Below the pieces are notes generated by a model. It was not told the origin of the DNA, ran no database searches, and was given only the letters and a program-made list of their open reading frames with translations. The translations under genes and the position numbers were made by a program. Shown in pieces: positions 21,281 through 29,516 of a stretch of 64,000 nucleotides of DNA. The stretch's first letter is position 1; each line of letters opens with the position of its first letter. Origin of the DNA: Paraconexibacter algicola (GTDB lineage: Bacteria; Actinomycetota; Thermoleophilia; Solirubrobacterales; Solirubrobacteraceae); assembly GCF_003044185.1 (NCBI RefSeq), contig NZ_PYYB01000002.1, positions 558,001 to 622,000 of the forward strand, written 5' to 3'.

Positions 21281-23059
21281 CTAGCGGCGGCGGGCGGCCT
21301 TCTTGCGCTTCTTGCTGGCCTGCGCCTTGGAGGTCGGCGTGATCAGCGTCTCGCAGCCCCGGACCACGTCGCGCTTGTCGACCTCGGCGACGTCGTCGCC
21401 CGGGCCGCAGTCGACGATGTCGCGCTCGCCGTCGTAGCTGAACAGGCGGTCGTTGCCGGTCCCGCCCTTCAGGCGGTCCTTGCCGAAGCCCGCGAACAGC
21501 GAGTCGTCGCCGGCCCCGCCGGAGAGGCCGTCGTCGCCGCGTCCGCCCTCGAGGTAGTCGTCCCCGCCCTCGCCGAACAGCAGGTCGTCGCCCGTCCTGC
21601 CGAACAAGAGGTCATCACCCTCGCCGCCGTAGATCTCGTCGTTGCCCGCCTCGCCCTCCAGCGAGCCGTCGTCGCCGCCGCCGGCGCGGATCGTGTCGTC
21701 GCCGGGACCGCCGAGCACGGTGTCGGCGCCCTCGGAGCCGGTGATCGTGTCGTCCCCGTCGCCCGCGTTGAAGATCGTCGCGCCGTCGGGGCTCGGGGCG
21801 GGCGGGAAGGTGCCGTCGGGCTGCAGCGCCCGGGCCAGGTTCGGCAGCAGCGCCGACAGGACGTCGGGGCCGTCGGTGCCGCGCAGGTTGGGCCGGCCGT
21901 CCTCCGTCGGATCCATGAGGAAGCGCTGCGAGTAGTCCGCGCAGCTCTTCATCGTGGTCTCGTCGATCGGCAGGGCGGGCTTCTCCGGGAAGGCCGACGC
22001 CGTCTGCAGGACCTTGTTGCTGTTCGGCGGGTACTGGCCGAGCGACAGGGCACCCGCCTTCTTCGGGCCGCTGACGAGCCAGCGCGCCACCGGCGAGCAG
22101 TAGGAGCGGTCGGAGCGCAGCACGATCGAGAACTCGCAGTTGGCCACCGAGGCGTCGGTGTCCTGCACGTCGAGGATCACCATGTCGTTGCCGTCGCCGC
22201 AGTCGATGCGGTTGTCGCCGGGGGCGGAGAACTCGCCCGGGACGATGAGCTCGGTGGAGTTCGGCTTGAAGTCCATCGCCCAGATCAGGTCGTCTCCCGG
22301 GCCGCCGATCAGCTCGTCGGCGCCCGAGTTGCCGACGAGGACGTCGTTGCCCTCGCCGCCGTCGACGAGGTCGCCGCCCTTGCCGCCGATCAGGAGGTCA
22401 TCGCCCGGTCCGCCCTCGAGCACGTCCTGGCCGCCGCCGCCGAGGAGGATGTCGTTGCCCGGGGCGCCGTCGTCGCCGTCGCCGTAGAGGTGGTCGTCGC
22501 CGCCACCACCGGAGATGAAGTCGTCCTGCGCCCCCCCGTAGAGGCCGCCGCCGTCGACCTTCGAGCCGTCGTTGCCGGTCTCGCCGTAGATGCGGTCGAT
22601 GCCCGGGCCACCGTGGGCGCTGACGTCGTCCCCGAAGCCCATCCGGATCGTGTCGTCGCCCGACCCGCCGGTGACGACGTCGTCGCCCTGGCCGGCGTTG
22701 AGGACGTCGTTGCCGTCGCCGCCGTCGAGGAGGTCGTCGCCGCGCTCGGCCGCGAAGTCGGCGCCGTTGCCGACCGTGTCGTCGCCGGGGCCTCCCAGCA
22801 TCCGGTCGTTGCCGGAGCCGCCGCTGAGGCGATCGTCGCCCGAGCCGCCGTCGAGGATGTCGTTGTGCGTGTAGCCGCGCAGCAGGTCGTTGCCGCCCAG
22901 GCCGCAGAGGTAGTCGGCGTTCCAGCCGCCGATCAGGCGGTCGACGCCGCGGGTGCCGCGCTGGTCGCAGCGTGACGCGTCGGCCGCGCCCGCGGTCAGC
23001 CCGGACGCGCAGAGCGAGAGGGCGATGATGGCTGGGAGTCCCCTGACGGTGCGGCGCAT
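21281..23059 (-). CDS. Secreted RTX calcium-binding repeat protein
   Basis: A 592-residue exported protein. A signal peptide (ends GAADA) leads into repeated nonapeptides of the GGxGxDxLx type in two blocks: roughly 35-270 (GGSGDDRLSGGSGNDRMLGG) and ~420-570 (GEGGDDYLEGGRGDDGLSGG). Each block should wind into a calcium-bound parallel beta roll. The middle (~275-420) is a different, Cys-containing region. There is a basic tail (KAQASKKRKKAARRR) and no protease or lipase domain, so a structural or S-layer-like role is likely. The ATG at 23059 lies inside the 3' end of the GIY-YIG gene, a 64-base overlap, and has no clear ribosome site. Confidence 0.85.
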   Translation of the reverse strand: MRRTVRGLPAIIALSLCASGLTAGAADASRCDQRGTRGVDRLIGGWNADYLCGLGGNDLLRGYTHNDILDGGSGDDRLSGGSGNDRMLGGPGDDTVGNGADFAAERGDDLLDGGDGNDVLNAGQGDDVVTGGSGDDTIRMGFGDDVSAHGGPGIDRIYGETGNDGSKVDGGGLYGGAQDDFISGGGGDDHLYGDGDDGAPGNDILLGGGGQDVLEGGPGDDLLIGGKGGDLVDGGEGNDVLVGNSGADELIGGPGDDLIWAMDFKPNSTELIVPGEFSAPGDNRIDCGDGNDMVILDVQDTDASVANCEFSIVLRSDRSYCSPVARWLVSGPKKAGALSLGQYPPNSNKVLQTASAFPEKPALPIDETTMKSCADYSQRFLMDPTEDGRPNLRGTDGPDVLSALLPNLARALQPDGTFPPAPSPDGATIFNAGDGDDTITGSEGADTVLGGPGDDTIRAGGGDDGSLEGEAGNDEIYGGEGDDLLFGRTGDDLLFGEGGDDYLEGGRGDDGLSGGAGDDSLFAGFGKDRLKGGTGNDRLFSYDGERDIVDCGPGDDVAEVDKRDVVRGCETLITPTSKAQASKKRKKAARRR

Positions 23060-23382
23060 GCGGGGTCGATCGGCGCGTCGGAACCGCGACTTGACCCGCA
23101 ATGTGGTGCTCTGGACGTCTGACCGCTCGGCGAGTCCAGCAGTGCCAGCTTCTCCGTTCGCGACAGGCGCTTGATGCGACGTTCCTCGCGCATCGCGGCC
23201 GCGCGGTCCTCCTGGGGCGCGGCCCAGACGAGCTCGACCGGCAGCCGGCTGCGGGTGTACTTCGCGCCGCGACCGGCGGCGTGGACGGCGAGCCGGGCGT
23301 CGAGGTCGACGGTCCAGCCGCAGTAGAGGCTGCCGTCCCCGCAGCGCAGGAGGTAGACCCAGGCGTCCGGCCGCCCGGTCAT
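22996..23382 (-). CDS. GIY-YIG nuclease-like protein
   Basis: A 128-residue protein with a small GIY-YIG domain in its first ~80 residues: WVYLLRCGDGSLYCGWT (the YCGWT strand replaces the usual YIG), DLDARLAVHAAGRGAKYTRSR with the catalytic Arg, and a Glu in MREERRIKRLSR. This matches the short UvrC-like YhbQ/COG2827 family, whose cellular role is unclear. The C-terminal ~45 residues are low-complexity and overlap the RTX start in another frame. Its ATG overlaps the stop of the lipoprotein gene (ATGA). Confidence 0.82.
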   Translation of the reverse strand: MTGRPDAWVYLLRCGDGSLYCGWTVDLDARLAVHAAGRGAKYTRSRLPVELVWAAPQEDRAAAMREERRIKRLSRTEKLALLDSPSGQTSRAPHCGSSRGSDAPIDPACAAPSGDSQPSSPSRSARPG

Positions 23383-23738
23383 CCGGCGGTCCCGGCGCCG
23401 GTCGGGCCGGTCGGGCCGGTCGGGCCGGTCGGGCCGGTCGGCGTCCCGGGGCGCTGCAGGGCGAAGCGGAATCCCCCGTCGCCGTCGAGCACCGTGACCT
23501 GCACCGCCGCCGCGCTGTCGTCGTCGAGGCGCAGGCCGCAGCGGAACGTCGTGCCCGCCCGGGCCGGACGGTCCTCCGGGCACCGCACCGCCGGGCGCTC
23601 CGCGGTCTGCCGTTCCAGGTCCGCGGCGATCGCCCGCTCGAGCGCGGCCTCGTCCAGCACGCGGACCGTGTCGCCGCCACAGCCGGCCACGAGCACCCCC
23701 GCGAACGCGAGCGCCGCGAGCCCGCCCGACGGGCGCAC
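23379..23738 (-). CDS. DUF4333-type lipoprotein with collagen-like tail
   Basis: A 119-residue lipoprotein: GTG start, hydrophobic stretch, lipobox VLVAGC. The mature part matches DUF4333 (VLDEAALERAIAADLERQT, then VRCPEDRPARAGTTFRCGL with the two conserved Cys), a domain of actinobacterial exported proteins. The C-terminus ends in about five Gly-x-x triplets (TGPTGPTGPTGPTG) encoded by a 9-base tandem repeat. GTG at 23738 is two bases from the previous stop, with GAGG seven bases upstream. ORF callers may extend it far upstream in a shadow frame; the lipobox argues against that. Confidence 0.75.
   Translation of the reverse strand: MRPSGGLAALAFAGVLVAGCGGDTVRVLDEAALERAIAADLERQTAERPAVRCPEDRPARAGTTFRCGLRLDDDSAAAVQVTVLDGDGGFRFALQRPGTPTGPTGPTGPTGPTGAGTAG
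23398..23442. repeat. 9-bp tandem repeat (CCGGTCGGG)
   Basis: Four perfect copies of CCGGTCGGG plus a fifth differing at the last base, coding the (Pro-Thr-Gly)n tail of the lipoprotein. Copy number could change without shifting the frame. Confidence 0.85.
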
Positions 23739-23740
23739 GC

Positions 23741-26080
23741 TCAGACCTCGAACTCGAGCGTCTCGCCCTTGCGGGCGTAGTGCGGCAGCGGCGGCAGCTC
23801 CACCGGGGTGGCGTGCATCGCGCGCATCCGGACGTCGCCCCAGCTGACGCCTTCCTTCACGAGCGCCGGAGCGCCCATGATGATCGCGGTCGCGATCTCG
23901 ACGGCCTGCAGGACGAGCCCGTAGCCGAGCGCGTCGGCGTAGCTGACGCCATAGGCGCCGGAGAGGACCGCGACGCACGCGGCCTGGAACACGCCGAGGT
24001 TCGACGGCGTGGCCGGCAGCACGGCGGTCACGTTGACGGCGAACAGCACCGCGGCCGCCGCGCCGATCCCGGCCTCGCCGTCGAGGCCGAACGCGACGAG
24101 CAGCACGTAGCAGGCGATCCACTGGATCACCCAGGCGGTGAGCTGCGCGCTGGTGGCGATCGCCGCCGCGCGCGGCCGGCGGAACACCGCCAGGCCACCA
24201 CGAACCTGCACGAGCGCACCGCGGGCCTTCAGCAGGAACGTCTCGATCCGCTTGGACCGCGACGGCAGGCCGCCCCGCAGCAGCGCAGGGGCCGCGAGCA
24301 CGACGAGCAGCACGACCAGCGGGGCGACCGTGAACAGCACGAGCGCGCTCTGGTTGCCGCGGAAGTAGCCGACCGACGAGAACATGACGATCCCGAGGAT
24401 CACGAGCGCCAGGATGTTCAGCAGCGTCTGCGAGACGAGCGTGCCGACGACCGCGGGGAGCGTGCCGCGGGCGCTGCCCAGGCGGCGCGCGACGATCATC
24501 GCGCGCGCGGGCTCGCCCAGGCGGGCGGGCAGCGTCGCGGACATGAGCACGCCGATGAACGTGCCCTGCATCGCGTCGGCGTAGCGCGCCGGGGTGTCCG
24601 GCAGCGCCGCACGGAGGATCGCGGTCCAGCTGACCGCGCGCACGACCATGGACAGGCACATCAGCCCGAGCGCGACGAGCACCCAGGTCGGCGAGCTGTC
24701 CAGCAGCGACGCGCTGACGCGCTCGACGCCGATCCGCTGCAGCGCCATCGCGGCGAGGCCGACGCCGCCGACGGTGGCGACGGCGAGCGCGGCGCGGCGC
24801 GCGAGCACGGCGCCGCGACGCGGCGCGCCCTGCGGCGGCGCGGGCTCCATCGAGGCGAGGCGGCGCGCGGGGACGCGCGGACCGAGGTCGGCGGGGATCG
24901 CGCCGACGCGCACGCCGACGCGCTGCGGGAGGGTGACGGGCTCCGGCCGGGCGATTGCGTCCTCGTAGGTCTCCAGGACCTCGGTGGCGACGCGCGACCA
25001 GGAGTACCGCTGCGCGTGCTCGGCCGCGGCGGCGCCCATCGCCCGGCGGCGGGCCGGGTCGAGCGCGAGCTCACGCAGGGCGGCGGCCAGCGCCACCGCG
25101 TCGCCGCGCGGCACGAGCAGGCCGTCGACGTCGTGGCGGACGACGTCCTGGTAGCCGGCGATGTCGGACGCCACGACCGGGGTGCCGGCCGCGAACGCCT
25201 CGGTGAGCACCATGCCGAAGCTCTCGCCGCCCAGCGACGGGGCGGCCAGCACGTCGGCGCTGCGCAGGACCGCGATCTTCGTCGCGTCGTCGACCTTCCC
25301 GAGCGCGGTGACGCCGCGGAGGTCGTCGAGGATCGGGGCGACGTCCTCGTGGCCGGCGCCGACGATCGTCAGGCGGGCGGGGACGTGCTCGCGCAGCGCC
25401 TCGAAGGCGCGCAGCAGGATCGGCAGGCCCTTGCGCTCGACGGCCTGGCCGACGAACACGACGTGGAGCCCGTCGTCGGCGTGGCCCGTGTGGAGCGCGA
25501 GCGGCTCGGCGGGGACGTCGACGCCGTTGGGGATCACGCGGTAGCGGCCGCCGTAGAAGCGGCGCCCGGTCCAGGCGGCGGCCTCGCTCACGGCGATCCG
25601 CTCGGTCAGGCGGTTGAGCCGCCAGCGCGCCCCGAGGAGGGTGCCGGCCGTGCCGTTGGTCGCCCGCGCGGTCGAGTAGCAGTGGAAGGTCCCCACGAGC
25701 GGCGCCGACGTGTGCGAGAGCACGTCCCAGCCGACGTACGGGGCCACGGGCTCGTGGACGTGGATGACGTCGAAGTTCCCGGCGGTCAGCTCGCGCCGCA
25801 TCGTCGACACCGCGTACGGCGTGACCGCGAGGTTCGACACCGCGCCGTTGGCGGGGAAGCCGACGGTCCGCCCGAGCGGGATCAGGTAGTCGGGGGCCTC
25901 CCGCGGCTCGGGTGCGGCCCCGCGGTGCAGGCGCTCCGCGAGGCGATCGGACGGGTCGTAGGGGGCGAGGACGCGGACATCGTGCCCGGACGACAGGAAC
26001 TGCCCCGCCAGAGCCTCGATGTGCCGGGTCACGCCCCCCGGATACGTCCACGAGTAGGGGGACACGAGCGCGATGCGCAT
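23741..26080 (-). CDS. Glycosyltransferase family 4 fused to a flippase-like (UPF0104/LPG-synthase TM) domain
   Basis: A 779-residue two-part protein. Residues 1-~380 are a GT-B glycosyltransferase of the GT4 type: MRIALVSPYSWTYPGGVTRH (N-terminal PGG loop), VIHVHEP, NGVDVPAEPL, VFVGQAVERKGL, and the sugar-nucleotide Glu motif ESFGMVLTEAFAAGTPVV. This resembles PimA-type mannosyltransferases. Residues ~430-750 hold about eight membrane helices with the UPF0104 signature (VVRAVSWTAIL, LMSATLPARLGEPARA, VTAVLPATPSNLGVFQAA), as in MprF/AglD-like flippases. One chain may therefore glycosylate a lipid and move it across the membrane. It starts 11 bases after the upstream membrane gene, within an envelope operon. 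Confidence 0.88.
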   Translation of the reverse strand: MRIALVSPYSWTYPGGVTRHIEALAGQFLSSGHDVRVLAPYDPSDRLAERLHRGAAPEPREAPDYLIPLGRTVGFPANGAVSNLAVTPYAVSTMRRELTAGNFDVIHVHEPVAPYVGWDVLSHTSAPLVGTFHCYSTARATNGTAGTLLGARWRLNRLTERIAVSEAAAWTGRRFYGGRYRVIPNGVDVPAEPLALHTGHADDGLHVVFVGQAVERKGLPILLRAFEALREHVPARLTIVGAGHEDVAPILDDLRGVTALGKVDDATKIAVLRSADVLAAPSLGGESFGMVLTEAFAAGTPVVASDIAGYQDVVRHDVDGLLVPRGDAVALAAALRELALDPARRRAMGAAAAEHAQRYSWSRVATEVLETYEDAIARPEPVTLPQRVGVRVGAIPADLGPRVPARRLASMEPAPPQGAPRRGAVLARRAALAVATVGGVGLAAMALQRIGVERVSASLLDSSPTWVLVALGLMCLSMVVRAVSWTAILRAALPDTPARYADAMQGTFIGVLMSATLPARLGEPARAMIVARRLGSARGTLPAVVGTLVSQTLLNILALVILGIVMFSSVGYFRGNQSALVLFTVAPLVVLLVVLAAPALLRGGLPSRSKRIETFLLKARGALVQVRGGLAVFRRPRAAAIATSAQLTAWVIQWIACYVLLVAFGLDGEAGIGAAAAVLFAVNVTAVLPATPSNLGVFQAACVAVLSGAYGVSYADALGYGLVLQAVEIATAIIMGAPALVKEGVSWGDVRMRAMHATPVELPPLPHYARKGETLEFEV

Positions 26081-26091
26081 CGCGCGGCATG

Positions 26092-28098
26092 CTACCGGGT
26101 CGCGCCGTCGGCTCCCGGACCCGGGTCGTGCTGCCCGAGTCGCGGATCGCCGCGCACGTACGCGGTGGCGATCGCCAGCACGAACACCCCGAGCACCAGC
26201 AGGACGGGCCCGGAGTCGTTCGACAGCGCGCCGGCGATCGCGGCGCCGAGCCCGCCGAGCAGCCCGGCGCGCCAGACCTCGTCGCCCTCCAGCGGCGCGT
26301 AGAGGCGCTCGCGGTGCCGGACCGCGTAGGCGATGGCGAGCGCGGCGATCCCGGCGGCGAACGGCATCAGACCGCGGCCGAAGACCCCGGCGGCGAGCTC
26401 GAACCGGCGCTGCACGATGTCCCAGATCGCGCTCTCCCCGTCCGCCCGCAGCACGGTCCGGGTGAAGTGCCCGTTGCCGCCGGTGAGGAGGTCGACGACG
26501 GCCAGGCCGAGGACGCCGAGGACCGGGGCGCCGAGCACGAGCGCGATCCGCTTCTTCGTCAGCGTCCCGGGGAGCAGCAGCACGACGCAGACCGCGGTCC
26601 CGACGCCGATCGTGATGACCCCGCCGACGTCGGCGCCGAGCCGGCCCGCCCCGATGATCCCGGCGTAGAGGACCCCGGCGATGCCGAACACCGCCGCCGT
26701 GGTGCGCGACCGACCGCGGCCCATCAGCAGCGCCGCCAGCGCGACGAACAGGACCAGCGGCAGCGTCGACTCGAGCTCGTTGCCGATCCCGTAGTAGCGC
26801 GACCCGAACCGCGGGTTGGGTCCCAGCAGGCTCTGCACGATGAGGTCGGACCCGCGGAACAGGTCGACCGTGTAGAAGGCGGTGCAGACGAGCCCGGGGA
26901 CGATCGGGCCGCGCGGCCACTTCACCAGCAGGTCGGTCAGCGCCCCGAGGCCGAAGCTCAGGATCGCGATCAGCGCCAGCTCGTTGCTCTTGGAGGGCGT
27001 CAGCGACGCCGTGATCAGCAGGACCGGGAGCAGCCAGAGGAACCCGAGCGCCCCGATGCGCAGCGCCGCACGGGTGCCGCGCCGGTCGGCGATCACCCCG
27101 CCGACGAGCACGATCGTCAGCCACACCACCAGCAGCAGCTGCAGCGCCGGGAAGCGGCGCGCCCCGAGCACGCGGAAGCGCTCCTTGAGCTGCTGCAGCT
27201 CGCCGGCGCTGAGCTTCCGGCCGACCGTGATGTCCTGCCCCTTGACGTCGTCGGGGACGCGGATCCCCAGGTGCCCGAGCACCGTCGGGAGGATGTCGAT
27301 GCCGGCGACGATGCCGTCCAGGTGCGTGGTCTGCGAGGTGATGCCGCCGGGGGTGCCGAGACCCAGGACACCGGTGGGCAGCAGCTGCGGGGCGCGGTAG
27401 TCGGGCGGGGTCTGCACGACGAGCAGCAGGTCGCCGGGCTCGTGGTTGGTGATGAGGACGTCCATCGCGATGCCGCCGGGCGGGCCGGTCGGCAGGCCGA
27501 CGACGACGAAGCGGCTGCGCTCCAGCTCGGCCAGGGCCCGCTGGGCGACGTCGCGGGAGTTGCCGATCGACACCCGCGCGACGCGGCCCGCACGGTCCGC
27601 GGCGACGATCGCCTCGAGCTGGCGGCGGCCGGTCACGCCGACGTAGGTGGCGCCGCCGGGGACGAGCGAGGCGAGCAGGCCCGGGTGGATCTCGGCCGGC
27701 GCCGTCTCCGCCCGGTCGAGCGTGTCGAGCCAGCGCTGGAAGAGCCCCCCGCGACCCTCCGGGTAGAAGGCCAGCTCGGGCGGCGTCCGCGGCCGGTAGG
27801 TCGACGTCGAGGTCCGCGTCCCCTGGGTCATGTCCAGGAACGCCTGCTCCTGCACGTAGGTGCCCTGCGTGGCGCCCAGCAGGCCGAGCGCGAGCGCCGG
27901 CCGCGAGGCGAGCCGGTCGAGGATCGACACGGGCGGCGCGGCCGGGTCCTCCTGGGGCTTCTCCGAGACCGGCAGGAAGGCCAGCACGACCCGCGGTGGC
28001 TTCTGGGCGGCGGCGGGGTCGGCGGCGGCTCCGGCCATCCCCAGCGCGAGCGCGACCAGGAGGGCGAGGACGCCCAGCGCGCGGCAGGGGCGGGACAT
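26092..28098 (-). CDS. Polytopic membrane protein with phosphatase-like extracytoplasmic region
   Basis: A 668-residue protein with signal peptide (ends AAAQ), an extracytoplasmic domain to ~320, then about ten membrane helices. The soluble part ends in LDGIVAGIDILPTVLGHLGIRVPDDVKGQ, the closing motif of alkaline-phosphatase/sulfatase-fold enzymes, and contains FVVVGLPTGPPGG and VLITNHEPGDLLLV. The metal-binding nucleophile region is not recognisable, so activity is doubtful. First gene of the envelope operon, directly before the GT4-flippase fusion. A role in lipid-linked glycan export or modification is inferred from context only. A TATAGT -10 precedes the ATG by 8 bases. Confidence 0.75.
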   Translation of the reverse strand: MSRPCRALGVLALLVALALGMAGAAADPAAAQKPPRVVLAFLPVSEKPQEDPAAPPVSILDRLASRPALALGLLGATQGTYVQEQAFLDMTQGTRTSTSTYRPRTPPELAFYPEGRGGLFQRWLDTLDRAETAPAEIHPGLLASLVPGGATYVGVTGRRQLEAIVAADRAGRVARVSIGNSRDVAQRALAELERSRFVVVGLPTGPPGGIAMDVLITNHEPGDLLLVVQTPPDYRAPQLLPTGVLGLGTPGGITSQTTHLDGIVAGIDILPTVLGHLGIRVPDDVKGQDITVGRKLSAGELQQLKERFRVLGARRFPALQLLLVVWLTIVLVGGVIADRRGTRAALRIGALGFLWLLPVLLITASLTPSKSNELALIAILSFGLGALTDLLVKWPRGPIVPGLVCTAFYTVDLFRGSDLIVQSLLGPNPRFGSRYYGIGNELESTLPLVLFVALAALLMGRGRSRTTAAVFGIAGVLYAGIIGAGRLGADVGGVITIGVGTAVCVVLLLPGTLTKKRIALVLGAPVLGVLGLAVVDLLTGGNGHFTRTVLRADGESAIWDIVQRRFELAAGVFGRGLMPFAAGIAALAIAYAVRHRERLYAPLEGDEVWRAGLLGGLGAAIAGALSNDSGPVLLVLGVFVLAIATAYVRGDPRLGQHDPGPGADGATR

Positions 28099-28112: not shown

Positions 28113-28131
28113 GGGCCGGTCGCGGGTGGAG

Positions 28132-28137
28132 TACTTT
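28132..28137 (+). promoter_or_regulatory. -10 element (TACTTT) of hemQ
   Basis: TACTTT ends 6 bases before ATG 28144. GGAGG directly abuts the ATG, too close to act as a normal ribosome site, which favours leaderless use of this ATG. An in-frame GTG lies at 28126. Confidence 0.45.
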
Positions 28138-28143
28138 TGGAGG

Positions 28144-28836
28144 ATGGCCGATCGGCACTTCGTCAAGTACACGTTCCTGAAGGTGGACCGCGCCTGGCGG
28201 CTGCTGCCCGCCGAGGAGCGCGCGGAGCACAAGCGCGAATTCCTCGCCGCCTGCGAGGACTTCGGTCAGGACCACCTGCTGCAGGCGTGTTCGACGGTGG
28301 GCACCCGCGGCGACGCCGACATGATGCTCGTCGCGGAGGCCGAGAACCTCGACCGCATCCACGAGTTCCACGTCGTGCTCGCGCAGTCGGGCCTGATGCG
28401 CTGGTGCGACACCCCCTACTCCTACCTCGGGATGCGCAAGACGTCGGAGTACTCCGACGAGGAGCGCCAGAAGCCGCGCCCGTTCACCGGCAAGTACCTG
28501 TTCGTGTACCCGTTCGTGAAGCAGCGCGCCTGGTACGCGCTGGACGCGCAGGAGCGCTGGCGGATCATGCAGGAGCACATCCGCGTCGGGAAGGAGTTCC
28601 CGAACGTCGACAACCACACGACCTACTGCTTCGGCCTCGACGACCAGGAGTTCGTCGTCGCGTTCGACACGAACGACGTCGGGGCGTTCCTCGACCTCGT
28701 GCAGCGGCTGCGGACGACCGAGTCCTCGGCCTGGACCGAGCGGGACACGCCGAGCTTCACCTGCATCAACACGACGATCGAGCGGGCGGTCAGCGCGCTC
28801 GACGGCGAGGCGCTGACGCTCGCCGTCCCCGGCTAG
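28144..28836 (+). CDS. hemQ: Coproheme decarboxylase HemQ (chlorite dismutase family)
   Basis: A 230-residue chlorite-dismutase-fold protein. In Actinobacteria and Firmicutes these oxidatively decarboxylate coproheme III to heme b, the last step of the coproporphyrin pathway. Seen: KYTFLKVDRAWR at the N-terminus, GKYLFVYPFVKQRAWYAL with the family Tyr, and the heme-proximal His region NVDNHTTYCFGLDDQEF. The distal Arg of true chlorite dismutases is not evident, supporting HemQ. Its TAG shares the palindromic CTAG with the stop of the convergent collagen-like gene. No other heme genes are nearby. Confidence 0.92.
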   Translation: MADRHFVKYTFLKVDRAWRLLPAEERAEHKREFLAACEDFGQDHLLQACSTVGTRGDADMMLVAEAENLDRIHEFHVVLAQSGLMRWCDTPYSYLGMRKTSEYSDEERQKPRPFTGKYLFVYPFVKQRAWYALDAQERWRIMQEHIRVGKEFPNVDNHTTYCFGLDDQEFVVAFDTNDVGAFLDLVQRLRTTESSAWTERDTPSFTCINTTIERAVSALDGEALTLAVPG

Positions 28837-29516
28837 CTGCCGGTGGTCGAGACCGTCTGGGCCTGCGTCGCCAGCAGGCTCGTGTGCTCGACCGTGCCGC
28901 CGCTCTCGATCTCGCAGGCGTAGGTCACGTCGGTCGGCGCGCCGAGCGTCACCAGCGCCTGGCCCGTCGGTGAGGCGCTGGAGCTGGACGCGATCCCGAA
29001 CAGGTTCTGCCGGTCGACCTCGGTCTCCCCGGTCTTCAGGACGCACGACACCGTCCGCGTGGCGGCCGGGGAGCCGTCGGTGACGACGGTCGCCCGCGCC
29101 TGCAGGACCCACCGCCCGGCGGGGACGCCCTGGAGCGTCACGAGTGGGGCGGTGCCCTGCGGCGCCGACGCGGTCCGCCTCGCCTCGAGGGCGACCGCGG
29201 ACCCGGCCGGACCGGTGTCCCCGGTCGGGCCGCGCTGACCCGGCGCCCCTGCCGGCCCCGTCCCCCCGGGAACGCCCGTCGGCCCCTGCGGGCCCGCGGC
29301 GCCCGTCGGCCCCTTCCCTGTCAGCGCCCGGCGGGCCGCCGCCGAGAGGTCGCCGGTGGTCAGCGAGCCGTCGCGGACGTCGCGGGAGCGGATCGTCCCG
29401 TCCTTGATGTCCGCGCTCGTGATCGTCGCGGCCGCGTAGCCGACGCCCCCGCCGGCAAGGACGAGCGCGACGATCGACACGGCCGTCGACGGATGGGCCA
29501 GATCTCGGAGTGCCAT
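28833..29516 (-). CDS. Exported collagen-like repeat protein
   Basis: A 227-residue protein with an N-terminal membrane anchor or signal (VSIVALVLAGGGVGYAAA). A short repeat follows (ADIKDGTIRSRDVRDGSL), then about a dozen Gly-x-y triplets (~residues 67-104, GPTGAAGPQGPTGVPGG) that should form a collagen-like triple helix. A C-terminal beta domain of ~120 residues has two Cys (VSCVLKTGE, YACEIESGG), likely a trimeric TNF- or C1q-like head. The N-terminal repeat and the head resemble the protein at 45973-46656, also 227 residues. ATG 29516 is fixed by a complete promoter six bases upstream. Confidence 0.85.
   Translation of the reverse strand: MALRDLAHPSTAVSIVALVLAGGGVGYAAATITSADIKDGTIRSRDVRDGSLTTGDLSAAARRALTGKGPTGAAGPQGPTGVPGGTGPAGAPGQRGPTGDTGPAGSAVALEARRTASAPQGTAPLVTLQGVPAGRWVLQARATVVTDGSPAATRTVSCVLKTGETEVDRQNLFGIASSSSASPTGQALVTLGAPTDVTYACEIESGGTVEHTSLLATQAQTVSTTGS

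What the first reader, a model, noticed from the sequence alone, without database searches (positions are those of the whole stretch)
23741..26080. Glycosyltransferase-flippase fusion in an envelope operon
A GT4 enzyme of the PimA-like type is fused to a UPF0104/MprF-type polytopic domain, linking synthesis and possible translocation of a glycolipid in one 779-residue chain. The operon adds a polytopic protein with a phosphatase-like ectodomain upstream and a collagen-tailed DUF4333 lipoprotein downstream. Together they look like an undescribed lipid-linked glycan export set.
Basis: partly seen in the sequence, partly recalled or inferred. Interest (0 to 1): 0.65.

Follow-up and report, generated by a model that had tools for sequence, protein, structure and literature searches.

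The report
PimA sugar transferase fused to flippase
In one order of soil actinobacteria (Solirubrobacterales), the enzyme family that adds the first mannose to the membrane lipid phosphatidylinositol is fused to a lipid-flipping type of membrane domain, which gives a testable candidate for the still unknown protein that moves such glycolipids across the membrane.

Summary
Window 23741-26080 (-) encodes one 779-aa chain: a GT4 enzyme whose closest solved relative is mycobacterial PimA (Z 39.6, 38% identity), then a complete LPG_synthase_TM (MprF-type flippase) domain. It is no artefact: 86 sampled genomes of the order carry it full length in one frame, and the fused GT domains form one clade inside the PimA family. 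In two other families of the class the same two parts are separate but adjacent genes, often overlapping by 4 bp; in the other phylum loci examined the GT has no such neighbour. Operon, then fusion: a strong functional link. Best reading: a PimA-type phosphatidylinositol mannosyltransferase with a built-in lipid scramblase (flipping not shown). Fusion of a GT with UPF0104 has a precedent (archaeal AglD), so this is a new variant of a known kind. It matters because the PIM flippase is unknown.

The parts
23741..26080 (-). Fused PimA-type GT4 glycosyltransferase and LPG_synthase_TM (MprF/UPF0104-type) membrane protein, 779 aa
24926..26080 (-). GT domain (residues 1-385), PimA-like; H133, R216, K217, E286 and E294 match PimA H118, R201, K202, E274 and E282; Q212 stands where PimA has R196
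23873..24784 (-). LPG_synthase_TM domain PF03706 (residues 433-736); model shows six long helices and two short helix pairs that look re-entrant; both ends predicted cytoplasmic from loop charges
26092..28098 (-). Upstream polytopic protein, 668 aa: signal peptide, degenerate alkaline-phosphatase-superfamily-like ectodomain, multi-helix membrane domain with conserved D412, R434, N440, H544, R564, N627, D628; uncharacterised family, no Pfam or NCBIfam match
23379..23738 (-). DUF4333 lipoprotein (PF14230) with (GPT)5 tail; neighbour in only a few relatives
22996..23382 (-). GIY-YIG domain protein; common downstream neighbour of the fusion, probably a passenger
28126..28836 (+). Divergent chlorite-dismutase-family (HemQ-like) gene; very common upstream neighbour of the fusion

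Best explanation
The protein is a member of the PimA family of phosphatidylinositol mannosyltransferases that, in Solirubrobacterales, became fused to a lipid-scrambling type of domain (MprF/UPF0104). Most likely the cytoplasmic GT domain transfers one hexose (probably mannose from GDP-mannose) to phosphatidylinositol in the inner leaflet, and the attached membrane domain lets the product reach the outer leaflet, as MprF does for lysyl-PG. Shown here: both domains, conserved catalytic-site residues, adjacency in relatives and one fused clade, and PI-pathway genes. Inferred: donor, acceptor, direction, and that the membrane domain scrambles lipid. The upstream polytopic protein probably handles the same glycolipid or another envelope glycan outside; that step is a guess.
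For: PimA is the best relative by sequence and structure (AF2 pLDDT 81; Z 39.6 for 2gej, next non-PimA 34.5). Fused GTs are one clade (SH-aLRT 99) in a group with M. smegmatis PimA. H118, R201, K202, E274 and E282 of PimA are invariant in 42 fused GTs. PF03706 at 117 bits. Separate but adjacent GT and TM genes in 12 of 16 loci of families f7/f9, several overlapping by 4 bp; their TM proteins score 106-155 bits against the fused TM profile, the best other paralogue of the own genome 42.9. The own genome has inositol-1-phosphate synthase and a PI(P)-synthase-like enzyme. PI is the main polar lipid of Conexibacter woesei (PMC3035278), and PI plus PIM are reported in a Solirubrobacter by TLC (PMC10722151). 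Loop charges put the GT side in the cytoplasm. MprF of P. aeruginosa scrambles many lipids (PMC11980842).
Against: No flipping or transferase activity has been measured. PimA's R196 is Q in 33 of 42 fused proteins, including this one, so donor binding may differ. PimA's basic membrane-binding patch is reduced. No PatA homologue in the genome, so it is not the mycobacterial acyl-PIM pathway; PimB was not tested. The PIM report rests on one TLC study whose formal species description omits PI and PIM. No PDB chain matched the TM profile by sequence. Six sampled genomes of the order lack the fusion.
Confidence: 0.55

Rival explanations
1. The membrane domain is only an anchor and scaffold: it holds a PimA-type enzyme, whose own basic membrane-binding patch has weakened, at the membrane and moves no lipid.
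For: Fused GTs have fewer basic residues in the PimA alpha-2 patch (mean net charge 1.0 against 3.1-3.4 in adjacent-gene and other-phylum homologues, 2.3 in class homologues without TM). The C-terminal domain of AglD was long without a defined function (PMC5898192).
Against: In families f7/f9 the TM protein is a separate gene next to the GT, so anchoring in cis cannot be its original role. Residues of the short helix pairs (in LPARLGE and LPATPSNLG) are kept in fused and unfused copies (invariant columns).
Confidence: 0.25
2. The GT uses another acceptor or donor (diacylglycerol, phosphatidylglycerol or polyprenyl phosphate; a UDP-sugar), so the product is a different glycolipid that the TM domain exports.
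For: R196 of PimA is Q in most fused proteins, and Y62 and R68 near the PI site differ. No PatA. Other GT4 enzymes with UDP-sugar donors share the fold.
Against: The nearest relatives by sequence, structure and tree are PimA; PI is abundant in Conexibacter; R196 is still R in families f2 and f3 of the fused clade; N instead of R68 is common in unfused relatives too.
Confidence: 0.2

Closest known systems
PimA, phosphatidylinositol mannosyltransferase (Mycobacterium; PDB 2gej, 4n9w)
   Same: Fold, 37-38% identity over the GT domain, catalytic-site residues, same group in the tree
   Different: Mycobacterial PimA is a peripheral protein without a membrane domain; here a polytopic domain is fused, the basic patch is weaker and R196 is Q
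MprF (lysyl-PG synthase and flippase/scramblase)
   Same: Synthesis and an LPG_synthase_TM (PF03706) domain in one chain
   Different: The synthase part is a tRNA-dependent aminoacyltransferase at the C-terminus, not a GT4; the modified lipid is PG
AglD (Haloferax volcanii)
   Same: N-terminal cytoplasmic glycosyltransferase fused to a C-terminal UPF0104 membrane domain (PMC5898192)
   Different: Archaeal N-glycosylation enzyme with a GT2-type transferase (GT2: own knowledge), not a PimA-type GT4

Membership tests
PimA family (GT4) | Best match and tree position with PimA rather than other GT4 | tested here: met
PimA family (GT4) | Catalytic and donor-site residues H118, R201, K202, E274, E282 | tested here: met
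   invariant in 42 fused sequences
PimA family (GT4) | R196 (donor-site residue named from own knowledge) and the polybasic membrane patch | tested here: inconclusive
   R196 is Q in 33 of 42 fused, R in families f2 and f3; patch reduced
PimA family (GT4) | GDP-mannose:PI mannosyltransferase activity | not testable with these tools
   needs biochemistry
LPG_synthase_TM / UPF0104 (PF03706) | Pfam model above gathering score over its full length | tested here: met
   117 bits against 33.4, model positions 6-302 of 302
LPG_synthase_TM / UPF0104 (PF03706) | Lipid flippase/scramblase activity | not testable with these tools
   measured for MprF (PMC11980842), not for this protein
MprF | C-terminal aminoacyl-transferase (DUF2156) domain | tested here: not met
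   no such domain in the protein; so not an MprF
Mycobacterial PIM pathway | PatA acyltransferase (PF03279) in the genome | tested here: not met
   none in the own genome (95.6% complete); control rings in C. glutamicum
Mycobacterial PIM pathway | PimB-type second mannosyltransferase | not tested
   other GT4 genes exist in the genome but were not assigned
Alkaline phosphatase superfamily (P0002 ectodomain) | Superfamily profile match and metal-site motifs | tested here: inconclusive
   only sub-threshold matches; metal-site motifs not kept

The most novel reading that the evidence does not exclude
The fused TM domain, and its separate adjacent homologue in two sister families, is a dedicated translocator of PI-mannosides: the first genetically linked PIM flippase, with the upstream polytopic family acting on the flipped product outside.
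Probability: 0.3. Interest if true: 0.75.

Novelty: new variant of a known kind. Interest (0 to 1): 0.5.

Why it matters
The protein that moves PIM intermediates across the membrane is still called 'a currently uncharacterized flippase' in 2025 (PMC12041525). A natural fusion, plus an adjacent-gene arrangement in relatives, of the first PIM enzyme's family with a scramblase-type domain is direct genetic evidence for which protein family could do it, and gives a single protein to purify and test. It would also be a bacterial parallel to MprF and AglD: make the lipid and flip it in one chain.

Tried and rejected
Split genes inside the order: the apparent splits checked (G107, G011) end at contig ends. 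Fusions among the distant GT matches: none found. DUF4333/collagen lipoprotein as a set member: rejected as lineage-restricted. P0002 structure model: failed (pLDDT 38.7), so no fold search was made with it. TM domain against PDB by sequence: no match; the Foldseek list shown was filled by the GT domain, so the TM fold was not tested by structure. A paper on Thermoleophilia markers does not mention the fusion. Promoter scan gave nothing. A TM-domain tree was too stretched by paralogues to date the fusion.

Full report
Observation. The open frame at 23741-26080 (-) runs from an ATG to a TGA without interruption and encodes 779 residues. Pfam finds the two GT-B halves (14-189, 200-354) and a full-length LPG_synthase_TM domain at 433-736 (117 bits, cut-off 33.4). 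Upstream, 11 bp away, lies a 668-aa polytopic protein (P0002) with no Pfam or NCBIfam match. Downstream, 2 bp away, is a GTG-started DUF4333 lipoprotein, then a GIY-YIG protein and an RTX-repeat protein. The divergent neighbour is a chlorite-dismutase-family (HemQ-like) gene.

GT domain. The closest solved proteins are mycobacterial PimA entries (E about 2e-60). An AlphaFold2 model from 28 relatives (pLDDT 81.3, pTM 0.68) matches PimA first by Foldseek (E 2.9e-23) and by VIA-align (Z 39.6, rmsd 2.7 over 349 residues; next non-PimA Z 34.5). In a tree with other GT4 enzymes of the genome as outgroup, all fused GT domains form one clade (SH-aLRT 99) within a group that holds M. smegmatis PimA and unfused relatives of the class and phylum (quick tree, many open deep forks). 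PimA H118, R201, K202, E274 and E282 are invariant in 42 fused sequences. PimA R196 is Q in 33 of 42, but R in families f2 and f3 and in all unfused relatives checked, so the change probably arose after the fusion. The basic patch of helix alpha-2 is weaker in fused proteins (mean net charge 1.0; 3.1 in adjacent-gene, 2.3 in other class and 3.4 in phylum homologues). The roles of these residues are from my knowledge of the PimA literature.

Membrane domain. The model shows six long helices and two short helix pairs; loop charges (10 K/R in the 600-637 loop, none in 662-715) put both ends in the cytoplasm, on the side of the GT. Residues of the short pairs are kept in fused and separate copies. 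PF03706 is the domain of MprF, which in P. aeruginosa scrambles many lipids without an energy source (PMC11980842).

Distribution. Of 103 sampled genomes of the order, 97 have the protein: 86 full length in one frame and 11 as partial or contig-edge pieces; the two apparent splits checked end at contig ends. Six lack it. A scan of named genomes gave 30 further homologues, from Solirubrobacterales where the record names an order or genus. In families f7 and f9 of the same class, 12 of 16 loci have a separate LPG_synthase_TM gene next to the pimA-like gene, on the same strand, often overlapping by 4 bp (one of the 12, L096, rests on the GT coordinates because my gene caller missed the GT). These loci were chosen by GT similarity, not at random. 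With about four such genes in a genome (own genome), chance adjacency would be well under 1% (rough estimate). In families f5, f6, f8 and in the other phylum loci examined (1.5-kb or wider flanks) no TM gene adjoins it. The TM proteins of f7/f9 score 106-155 bits with the fused TM profile, the best other paralogue of the own genome 42.9.

Pathway context. The own genome encodes inositol-1-phosphate synthase and a CDP-alcohol phosphotransferase closest to PI(P) synthases. It has no PatA-family acyltransferase. PI is the main polar lipid of Conexibacter woesei (PMC3035278). One Solirubrobacter paper reports PI and PIM by TLC, but its formal description omits them (PMC10722151).

Neighbours. P0002 homologues occur in 60 genomes of the order, 57 of which also have the fusion; in 44 of the 57 the two are adjacent. 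Forty genomes have the fusion without P0002. In family f23 of the phylum, two genomes have a P0002-like gene convergent to an unfused pimA. The family is broad: 87 of 246 phylum genomes match its profile. Elsewhere it lies beside other envelope genes: in L213 and L218 next to a GT4, with SteA-like and MctB genes or MurJ near, and in L221 next to a GT87. Its ectodomain gives only sub-threshold matches to alkaline-phosphatase-superfamily models and lacks conserved metal-site motifs; the strictly kept polar residues (R434, N440, H544, R564, D628) lie in the membrane part. The DUF4333 neighbour occurs in this genome and, by similarity, in three genomes of genus code g3 (G017 judged by eye); the collagen-like tail is an exact 9-bp repeat. 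GIY-YIG and HemQ-like genes are common neighbours and are probably passengers.

Reading. Adjacent in relatives, fused here, each part conserved: the two activities very probably serve one lipid. The simplest lipid is a PI-mannoside. Fusion of a GT with a UPF0104 domain is known from AglD, and all members of that family were proposed to be flippases in 2015 (PMC5898192), so the architecture is not a new kind. What is new, as far as the papers I could search show, is the link to PimA, whose pathway still lacks a flippase (PMC12041525). An ABC transporter, Rv1747, is the subject of the one paper found that uses the phrase 'translocation of PIMs' (PMC5549992; not read in full), so a different kind of PIM exporter remains possible in mycobacteria. 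Flipping, donor and acceptor remain to be shown.

Noticed in passing
26092-28098; L190-L223: P0002 belongs to a broad family without a Pfam model (AP-like ectodomain with lost metal-site motifs; membrane motifs R-F-Y-G-x-G-N-E, G-A-[DN]-V-G-G, N-D-[ST]-G), beside GT4, GT87, MurJ, SteA-like or MctB genes in other actinobacteria.
   Followed up: partly
residue Q212 of the fusion, codon near 25447 (PimA R196): A donor-site arginine is glutamine in family f1 fusions but still arginine in f2 and f3 fusions and all unfused relatives checked.
   Followed up: partly
L115, L119 (genus g14, family f1): A stand-alone paralogue of the fused membrane domain sits next to a hopanoid-type gene cluster (squalene-hopene-cyclase-like, squalene-synthase-like, HpnH-like genes; named by eye).
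   Followed up: no
L029, L116, G047, G071: P0002 is present as two tandem copies upstream of the fusion (in L116 one is cut by the contig end).
   Followed up: no
21281-23059 (-): 592-aa secreted-looking protein with 14 RTX (HemolysinCabind) matches downstream of the operon.
   Followed up: no
28833-29516 (-): Second protein with a collagen-like repeat near the operon (sub-threshold Pfam Collagen match).
   Followed up: no
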